Assembly (NCBI RefSeq): GCF_902827225.1
Contig: NZ_LR792632.1
Coordinates: 701,030-765,029 of the forward strand
DNA: 64,000 nucleotides
Reading direction: 5' to 3'
From: Methanocaldococcus lauensis
Lineage (GTDB): Archaea > AGJL01 > Methanococci > Methanococcales > Methanocaldococcaceae
In this document: positions 22,828 through 38,426 of the stretch, piece by piece
How the letters are laid out: the number at the start of each line of letters is the position of its first letter
Position numbering within the stretch: position 1 is the stretch's first letter
Made by a program: the position numbers and the translations under genes
The notes under the pieces: model-generated
The model's input: only the letters and a program-made list of their open reading frames with translations
Databases searched by the model: none
What the model was told of the DNA's origin: nothing

Positions 22828-23128
22828 CCGTTTAAAATTGATAAATTAAATATAGACAAGTATTTAAATATGTATTGAAAAAATATAACGACAAAGAATA
22901 GAATGCATATTGAATGGATTAAAAAACAAACTAAAACTACCGAAATCAAATGAATTCAAAAAATAAAAAAAATTAGTTATAAAACGATAACGATTTTAGT
23001 TAATCTGCCTATATTTCAATAACCTGTCCCATATGCGGGAGTAAAATGGAGTCCTAAAAGAGACATGTCGTTTATTGTCCAAATTGTAAAAAGTAGTCTA
23101 TAATCGCCTATATATTATCTATATCGGG
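22828..23128 (+). pseudogene. Relic of a TnpB transposon (left end, zinc finger, right end)
   Basis: A deleted copy of the element at 36301-37782. The left-end core CCGTTTAAAATTG (22828-22840) matches 36316-36328. At 23022-23095 the zinc-finger codons survive: TCPICGSKMES, a stop, then KRHVVYCPNCKK and a stop. From 23093 GTAGTCTATA to TATCGGG (23128) matches the right end. Everything between the left end and the finger, and the finger to the right end, has been lost or scrambled. The rest of the gap from 22801 to 23178 shows no gene. Confidence 0.75.
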
Positions 23129-36300: not shown

Positions 36301-36452
36301 GTTTTAAATATAATGCCGTTTAAAACTGTTTAAAAATATATAGGCATAGATAGACAAATATACTCATTTATCGACAGTTAAAAAAGAAATCTTTTTATAC
36401 TTTGTAAAATAATTCATTAATAATAAAAAGAGATAAAAATTTCGGTGATAAA

Positions 36453-37652
36453 ATGAGGAATAAAATCCCCAACCAAATCATTCTGGCATATAAGGTTTCT
36501 CACAATTATAATATAAATAATTTTCTAATCGATTTTTTAAATCTCTCTCAAAAGGCAGTTGATATTATCTGGAGCAATATCTATTGGAAAGAAAAAGTAG
36601 TTAAACATCGGTATAAAGTTGGAAATAATTATAAATACTACACTACCGTTCGGTTAATCCCAGAAATTCCCAAAGATAAAGATTTTAAGAGGGAGTTAAG
36701 GAGAAGATTATTAAACGGCTGGAATTATGCTTCCCATTATATCGATGCGGCCATTAAAGTGGCATATTCAACAATAGATAGTTGGAAATCTAATTATTTA
36801 AAGGGATTAAGAAAAAGAACTAAGGTGATATTTAAAAGACCCTTCGTTAGAGTTAAAACTACTTTAATAAAATACAATAAAGAAAAAGGAGAAATTAAAA
36901 TTACTATTAAGCCGAGAAAGGAATATTTAATTTTAAACATTAAAGATGAATGGTTTTTCGATAAGGTTAAAGATTGGGAGATTGGAGAAATTATTTTGAA
37001 GGAGAACTCTGCTTATCTAACTTTCAAACAATCTTTAGACCATTCGAATAGAGAAATAATTGTTGGAGTTTATAGCAATCTAAAATCTCTCGATATATAT
37101 CATCCAATTGAAGGATGGATTAGAGTTGATTTATCCGAACTCCATAGAATTAAAGTGGTTTATGATATTATCATTGATAAATTAAAATCTATTTATAAAA
37201 AATCTCCTAAACGAATAGGGAGGTTATTAAAAAAATATCTCAATAGAAGAAAAAACCGAGTTAAAGATTTTATCAATAAACTTACAACTCAATTGTCTCG
37301 TTTATTCCCTAATGCTATTTTTATCTTCGAAGACCTAAATAAGTTCAATATGTACGATAAAAATTCGAAATTTCATAGAGAATTAGATAGAACGAGTTGG
37401 AAGAGTATTGCTAAACAGTTAGAATATAAGAGTATTGTTTTATATGTAAATCCACACTACACATCAAAAACCTGTCCCGTATGCGGGAGTAAAATGGAGT
37501 CCCAAGAGGGGCAGGTTGTTTATTGTCCGAATTGTAAAAAATCATTTAATAGACAGTTAGTAGGCTCTTTCAATATTTTTAAAAGAGGAATTAAATTGGT
37601 TAAAAAAATTGAAAGGCGGAGCTGGGGTCCCCGTGTCTGGGGCGGAGGTTGA
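36453..37652 (+). CDS. tnpB: TnpB-like RNA-guided nuclease homologue with lost RuvC aspartates
   Basis: A 399-residue full-length TnpB, the ancestor family of Cas12. The N-terminal REC/WED part starts MRNKIPNQIILAYKV. The RuvC core is recognisable, but motif I reads VGVYSNL with Tyr207 at the usual Asp, and motif III reads FNRQLVGSFNI with Asn366 at the usual Asp. Motif II FEDLNKFN keeps Glu293. The zinc finger is intact (Cys341, Cys344, Cys358, Cys361). Each lost Asp is one base from GAT (TAT at 37071, AAT at 37548). The frame is otherwise undamaged. Such a protein should bind guide RNA and DNA but not cut; it may be a nuclease-dead regulator or a recently inactivated transposon gene. The start follows GGTGATAAA. 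Confidence 0.85.
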   Translation: MRNKIPNQIILAYKVSHNYNINNFLIDFLNLSQKAVDIIWSNIYWKEKVVKHRYKVGNNYKYYTTVRLIPEIPKDKDFKRELRRRLLNGWNYASHYIDAAIKVAYSTIDSWKSNYLKGLRKRTKVIFKRPFVRVKTTLIKYNKEKGEIKITIKPRKEYLILNIKDEWFFDKVKDWEIGEIILKENSAYLTFKQSLDHSNREIIVGVYSNLKSLDIYHPIEGWIRVDLSELHRIKVVYDIIIDKLKSIYKKSPKRIGRLLKKYLNRRKNRVKDFINKLTTQLSRLFPNAIFIFEDLNKFNMYDKNSKFHRELDRTSWKSIAKQLEYKSIVLYVNPHYTSKTCPVCGSKMESQEGQVVYCPNCKKSFNRQLVGSFNIFKRGIKLVKKIERRSWGPRVWGGG

Positions 37653-37716
37653 TGATATGCTCCCCGATGAACCCAGAGGGGAGCTGAAACTCATGACGCC
37701 CAATCCCGATGTAGTC
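37600..37716 (+). ncRNA. Candidate omega-RNA (reRNA) scaffold of the TnpB element
   Basis: The tnpB 3' end and the bases after it form a GC-rich island in an A/T-rich genome. GCTCCCC (37659-37665) pairs with GGGGAGC across 12 nt, and GGGGTCCCC precedes it. Omega-RNAs of TnpB overlap the 3' end of the gene and run to the right end, with the guide taken from flanking DNA. The same segment (GGGCGGAG...GAACCCAGAG) is the best-preserved part of the relic at 48290-48450, which supports its being functional sequence. Ends are estimated. Confidence 0.5.
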
Positions 37717-37782
37717 TATACCGTCAATTTTAATGGAAAATATTTAAAATGTCTATAATTGTCTATATTTGACTACATCGGG

Positions 37783-38426
37783 AAGACCCCTTTTCTATTA
37801 TGTAATAAATAGTTCTTAAAGGATTTCTTGGAATATCTTTTGCAGATCTGTAATTTACATATTCAGAATTCACTAACCTATAGTTTTCAATTTCCTTTTT
37901 ATCAATTGATTTTATTAACTTCTCTATAACAACTTCAGGTCTTAAATTGTAGATTGTGCTTTTTATATATGGGATTACAATTAAAAAAATCAAAGTATGC
38001 AAAGAAAAACACTAAGTATATTAAAAAATTGTATGGGATTGTGAAACTTCCAATAACAATATCTTTTTTTACTGGTAAAAAACCTAAAGCAAAAACCTCA
38101 TAACCCATTGAAATTAAATAAGATAAAATAAATGCCCAAAATGTTTTGTTTAATATTATATGACCAATTCTTGTTGAATATTGCTGACTAACCATCTGTA
38201 TAGCAATAATTGTAATTGAAACTATTATTCCAATCATTCCTGCCTGAGTTTGTAGTAAAGCACTTAAAATATATCTAACATTATCTGAAAATCCCTCATC
38301 CCAAGAAAAGCAGTGTATGGAGATTATTGTAAGGATAACTGCAATTATTGAAATAAAAATTATATTTCTTATCACATCCTCTTTAAATATTTCAACAATT
38401 CTCAATAAATCCAAGTTTATCACCAA
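37783..38426 (-). pseudogene. 5' half of a DUF2254-like membrane protein gene, interrupted
   Basis: Begins MVINLDLLRIVEIFKED after GGTGATAAACTT. About four membrane segments and TQAGMIGIIVSITIIAIQMV followed by SQQYSTRIGHIIL match the DUF2254 membrane family. The frame shifts at an A7 run (37983-37989 on the + strand): one frame ends after FFFAYFDFF, the other continues IFLIVIPYIKSTIYNLRPEVV to IYYIIEKG, where it enters the TnpB element. The missing soluble part lies at 35684-36300. Confidence 0.75.

What the first reader, a model, noticed from the sequence alone, without database searches (positions are those of the whole stretch)
36453..37652. Full-length TnpB with both RuvC aspartates replaced
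The open frame is intact over 399 residues, with zinc finger and central Glu293 preserved, but the RuvC-I Asp is Tyr207 and the RuvC-III Asp is Asn366. Each change is one base. Loss of two of three catalytic residues without any frame damage is the pattern of nuclease-dead TnpB proteins (TldR-type repressors described in bacteria), or a recent mutation. The neighbouring element-split gene shows several other mutations, while tnpB shows none, which gives some weight to retained function.
Basis: partly seen in the sequence, partly recalled or inferred. Interest (0 to 1): 0.72.

Follow-up and report, generated by a model that had tools for sequence, protein, structure and literature searches.

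The report
Disabled copy of rearranged-site archaeal TnpB
This is one inactivated copy of a jumping-gene nuclease (TnpB) in a heat-loving methanogen; only one of the two reported damaged residues is really damage, while the other marks an archaeal TnpB group in which one catalytic acid is missing from its usual place and a new acid stands elsewhere in the active-site region.

Summary
The 399-aa frame and Tyr207 are real; the reading 'two catalytic Asp lost, TldR-like' is mostly not. Tyr207 sits on the RuvC-I catalytic Asp. It is unique among 26 distinct intact ORFs of its clade and shared only with a truncated pseudogene in the same genome, through mosaic (converted) sequence; the sister strain's copy at the pseudogene's locus has Asp. 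Asn366 is not the RuvC-III catalytic position: ISDra2 D361 aligns with Gln368, and [N/D]RQ is fixed across the clade (Methanococcales plus Sulfolobales ISSis5), so it is ancestral, not damage. All 26 clade members carry Asp at RuvC-I Asp+7 (D214); none of 54 DED relatives does. This suggests the third carboxylate was relocated, not lost. The element is IS607-type without tnpA: CC/GG core, exact empty site in strain SG1, TnpA beside relatives. Its guide RNA covaries strongly and is intact here. The gene also has a +1 A frameshift replacing its C-terminal tail. The guide has no good target but its own empty site. Best reading: a recently inactivated copy of a mobile TnpB with a probably rearranged active site. 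A TldR role is unsupported.

The parts
36316..37790 (+). IS607-type element without tnpA, from left CC core (36316-36317) to right CC core (37789-37790)
   Evidence: Ends conserved with L002; exact empty site with a single CC in strain SG1
36453..37652 (+). tnpB, 399 codons, predicted unable to cut
37071..37073 (+). Tyr207 (TAT), RuvC-I catalytic position; Asp (GAT) in all 18 aligned relatives
37092..37094 (+). Asp214 (RuvC-I Asp+7), proposed relocated carboxylate, intact here
   Evidence: 26/26 DEQ have Asp, 0/54 DED do
37329..37331 (+). Glu293, RuvC-II catalytic Glu, intact
   Evidence: invariant
37548..37550 (+). Asn366, not the catalytic position (aligns with ISDra2 D359)
   Evidence: varies N/D among relatives
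37554..37556 (+). Gln368, at the ISDra2 D361 position, fixed in the clade
37602..37608 (+). 7-A run, +1 frameshift relative to L002/L014 (6 A); replaces the C-terminal tail
37615..37788 (+). Predicted guide-RNA (omegaRNA) scaffold overlapping the 3' end of tnpB
   Evidence: z -4.7; 17 of 33 pairs with two-sided changes
37791..37808 (+). Flank that would serve as guide; matches only its own flank and the SG1 empty site
   Evidence: exact guide start not determined

Best explanation
The locus is one copy of a tnpA-less IS607-type element in a Methanocaldococcus strain. Its TnpB belongs to an archaeal clade (Methanococcales and Sulfolobales ISSis5) in which the RuvC-III catalytic Asp is Gln and a new Asp stands at RuvC-I Asp+7. 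Shown: this sequence swap and its fixation in 26/26 clade members, the IS607 ends, the structured guide RNA, and the D207Y and frameshift lesions of this copy. Inferred: this copy, lacking Asp207, cannot cut and is a recently inactivated element rather than a domesticated repressor (about 0.85). Inferred more weakly: Asp214 stands in for the missing carboxylate, so that normal clade members still cut DNA under RNA guidance (about 0.5). The intact guide RNA here could still be used in trans by the intact copy L002 in the same genome (untested).
For: D207 invariant in the 18 aligned relatives, Tyr only here and in pseudogene L003. L003 is the same insertion as SG1's L026, which has Asp; L003 is a mosaic, window-like at 11 of 12 diagnostic sites at 36896-37091. 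Window-branch substitutions 12 synonymous/11 nonsynonymous, like its sisters. [N/D]RQ fixed in the clade and Asp+7 in 26/26 against 0/54. Empty site in SG1 with a CC core; IS607 TnpA beside relatives. Covarying guide RNA.
Against: The inactivity of Tyr207 and any cutting by the clade are not measured. The Asp+7/Gln pairing is probably a single evolutionary event, so the perfect correlation carries the weight of one change. The model gives no coordinates, so the D207-D214 geometry is unchecked. The lack of other damage would also fit retained function.
Confidence: 0.75

Rival explanations
1. The whole DEQ clade is a natural RNA-guided DNA binder that does not cut (as Cas12m), kept by IS607 elements to regulate transposition or protect the donor site; the window copy is a further-degraded member.
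For: The canonical RuvC-III Asp is missing in all 26 members; guide RNA and fold are kept; Cas12m is a natural precedent.
Against: D207 and E293 stay invariant, which a mere binder would not need; an Asp appears at RuvC-I+7 together with the loss.
Confidence: 0.35
2. The window copy is a TldR-like repressor whose Tyr207 was selected to keep binding without cutting.
For: Only one radical change at an otherwise invariant site; the rest of the protein and the guide RNA are well kept.
Against: Guide matches only its own flank and the SG1 empty site; insertion absent from SG1; Tyr207 also in a truncated pseudogene; no neighbouring non-transposon partner gene was identified.
Confidence: 0.06
3. The first Asp of DRQ (position 366) is the replacement catalytic residue of the clade, so N366 members, this one included, are doubly impaired.
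For: ISSis5, the Acidianus virus copy, L016, L017 and L018 have D366.
Against: N and D alternate among close relatives (L015 N beside L018 D), most mobile copies have N, and the position is also N in LaTranC.
Confidence: 0.1

Closest known systems
IS607-family TnpB, e.g. ISSis5 of Sulfolobus islandicus pYN01 (WP_012717887.1)
   Same: 33% identity to L002 TnpB, IS607 context, RuvC-I Asp+7, RuvC-II Glu, DRQ in RuvC-III
   Different: ISSis5 keeps its tnpA, D207 equivalent and D366 equivalent; the window copy has Tyr207, Asn366 and no tnpA
ISDra2 TnpB (IS200/IS605, 8bf8/8h1j)
   Same: Fold, zinc ribbon, RuvC-I/II positions
   Different: Catalytic D191/E278/D361 all present; window has Tyr, Glu, Gln
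TnpB clades with RuvC-III rearrangement (RIII-r4; Nety 2023, PMC10278001)
   Same: Non-canonical RuvC-III residue in a transposon TnpB
   Different: The defining paper is not held, so whether this clade is part of it could not be checked
TldR (PMC13418256 and Wiegand 2024)
   Same: RuvC-I catalytic residue mutated in an otherwise intact frame
   Different: Inactive state not conserved, still a transposon insertion, no trans target found
Cas12m
   Same: RNA-guided TnpB/Cas12 fold that binds target DNA without cutting it; fold match
   Different: CRISPR effector; details of its altered active site recalled, not tested

Membership tests
TnpB (RNA-guided nuclease family) | Cas12f1-like TNB domain and TnpB/Cas12f fold | tested here: met
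   PF07282 49.9 bits over the cut-off 26.3; relative's model matches Cas12f/TnpB/Fanzor structures. NCBIfam guided_TnpB 77.7 bits, below its cut-off of 100
TnpB (RNA-guided nuclease family) | Structured guide RNA at the 3' end of the element | tested here: met
TnpB (RNA-guided nuclease family) | Canonical D-E-D RuvC triad | tested here: not met
   Y-E-Q here, D-E-Q in the clade
IS607 element | Insertion at a GG/CC dinucleotide without further target duplication | tested here: met
   Empty site in SG1; definition from PMC6188088
IS607 element | Serine recombinase TnpA | tested here: not met
   Absent in this copy; present beside relatives
TldR | RuvC catalytic residue(s) lost in an intact frame | tested here: met
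   D207Y, with a C-terminal frameshift
TldR | Inactive state conserved in a lineage | tested here: not met
   Private to this copy and a pseudogene of the same genome
TldR | Guide that targets a host gene elsewhere | tested here: not met
TldR | RNA-guided repression without cutting | not testable with these tools
   needs experiments
RuvC-III rearranged TnpB (RIII-r4) | Clade placement and residue pattern of the defining paper | not testable with these tools
   Paper not held

The most novel reading that the evidence does not exclude
An archaeal IS607 TnpB clade spanning Methanococcales and Sulfolobales has moved its third RuvC carboxylate from RuvC-III to the second strand of RuvC-I (D207, D214, E293, with Gln368) and remains a working RNA-guided nuclease.
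Probability: 0.42. Interest if true: 0.62.

Novelty: new variant of a known kind. Interest (0 to 1): 0.45.

Why it matters
Calling a TnpB 'dead' from motif positions misleads if the catalytic acid can sit elsewhere. This clade offers a clean test: a fixed Asp-to-Gln change in RuvC-III paired with a new Asp in RuvC-I, in many mobile copies, thermophilic hosts and archaeal viruses. Either outcome (a working rearranged site, or an ancient mobile RNA-guided binder) would inform how RuvC nucleases such as Cas12 lose or keep cutting.

Tried and rejected
Rejected: N366 as the catalytic position; damage of both sites in this copy; TldR. IMG/VR scans with A2 found no relative and with P0003 two short matches; the broader A5 scan gave DED proteins used as controls. 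The single genome-contig scan gave Methanococcales only. Rfam had no significant match. Altae-Tran 2023 and Wiegand 2024 are not held. Model coordinates are not given, so the D207-D214 distance could not be measured.

Full report
Observation. The frame 36453-37652 is intact over 399 codons; Tyr207, Glu293, Asn366 and the four zinc-finger Cys are present. Pfam, NCBIfam and PDB searches place it in TnpB, and a model of its closest D207 relative (mean pLDDT 77.7, pTM 0.49) matches Cas12f, TnpB and Fanzor structures.

Which residue is which. In alignments to ISDra2 TnpB the RuvC-III motif DRD aligns with NRQ: N366 with D359, Q368 with D361. That D361 is the catalytic residue of ISDra2 is from my own knowledge; PMC8612924 names D191 and E278 and its held text does not print D361. 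LaTranC has HNRD, so N at the first position is found elsewhere.

Ancestral state. A copy in the same genome, 92% identical, has D207 and the same NRQ. All other intact Methanococcales members have D207, E293 and [N/D]RQ, including the many copies of one genome, G035, which has eleven matches. A Sulfolobus islandicus IS607 TnpB (ISSis5) and an Acidianus virus copy have DRQ. The tree puts the Methanococcales DEQ proteins on one well supported branch against DED relatives; long branches make the order of outgroups unsure.

The swap. Across 80 aligned TnpB ORFs, every one with Gln at the RuvC-III site (26, window included) has Asp at RuvC-I Asp+7, and none of the 54 with Asp at RuvC-III does; those have mostly Ala, Thr or Val. 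This is probably one event on the tree, but it is exact and fixed over two archaeal phyla. The residue lies in the second strand of the RuvC-I hairpin of the model (strands 202-208 and 212-217). I infer that Asp214 may supply the lost carboxylate. Nety 2023 notes that TnpBs with rearranged RuvC motifs need not be inactive, and one RuvC-II-rearranged ortholog was active.

Lesions of this copy. Tyr207 (GAT>TAT) is one of three private changes at sites otherwise invariant in 18 relatives; the others are V10I and P125V. The window branch carries 12 synonymous and 11 nonsynonymous changes, in proportion like its sisters, so there is no sign of long neutral decay. A one-base A insertion at 37602-37608 changes the tail; tails also differ or are cut short in several relatives, so it may matter little. 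Pseudogene L003 of the same genome also has TAT. It is the same insertion as L026 of strain SG1, which has GAT. Along L003, window-like and L026-like tracts alternate; from 36896 to 37091, 11 of 12 diagnostic sites are window-like, and window and L003 differ at 7 of 351 positions in 36866-37216. Gene conversion between copies best explains the shared Tyr; its direction is unknown.

The element. Strain SG1 (Methanocaldococcus sp., LR792634.1; listed as the same species) has the uninterrupted site AAATATAATGCCTTTTCTATT. The window holds CC-element-CC; IS607 inserts at GG without duplication (PMC6188088). Relatives carry an IS607 serine recombinase upstream; the window copy has none. In SG1 the host gene reads through this junction in frame, although it seems to carry a stop of its own upstream.

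Guide RNA. The 3' segment 37615-37788 folds better than all 200 shuffles (z -4.7). Over 13 sequences 98.4% of cells pair and 17 of 33 pairs show two-sided changes, against 0-3 for slid structures. The scaffold is intact in the window. The 20 bases from the right core match only their own flank and the SG1 empty site; 3-mismatch hits are no more than in controls. There is no sign of a regulatory target; the intact D207 protein L002 could use this RNA in trans (inference).

Conclusion. This copy is best read as a recently inactivated, non-autonomous IS607-type element. The general interest lies in its clade: TnpBs with Gln in RuvC-III and a new Asp in RuvC-I. Whether that clade cuts (a slight lean) or only binds DNA needs the assays listed.

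Noticed in passing
window 22995-23099 (G000:C1:724024-724128): Short fragment matching TnpB residues 331-365 with stops; similar ~84-base fragments occur elsewhere in this genome and in SG1.
   Followed up: no
L017, L018, L031, L058; L020, L063, L064, L068, L079, L082, L083 (3' ends): Extra hairpin modules (GGAAGCGAAGCTTCC type; CTCGGAGCGAAGCGACGAG type) inserted in the guide-RNA region of several relatives, changing the reading frame of the tail.
   Followed up: partly
L003 versus L026 (G000:C1:646764; SG1 orthologous insertion): Mosaic pseudogene with alternating tracts, pointing to gene conversion between element copies.
   Followed up: yes
L116 and records MK054236.1, MK054237.1: Archaeal viruses (Acidianus tailed spindle virus, Sulfolobus spindle-shaped virus) carry ISSis5-like TnpB, 88-98% identical to the plasmid copy.
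   Followed up: partly
A3 alignment, window residues ~326-330: Methanococcales DEQ proteins lack about five residues before the zinc ribbon (YKAKxxGxxV to YKSxV) that Sulfolobales DEQ and DED relatives keep.
   Followed up: no
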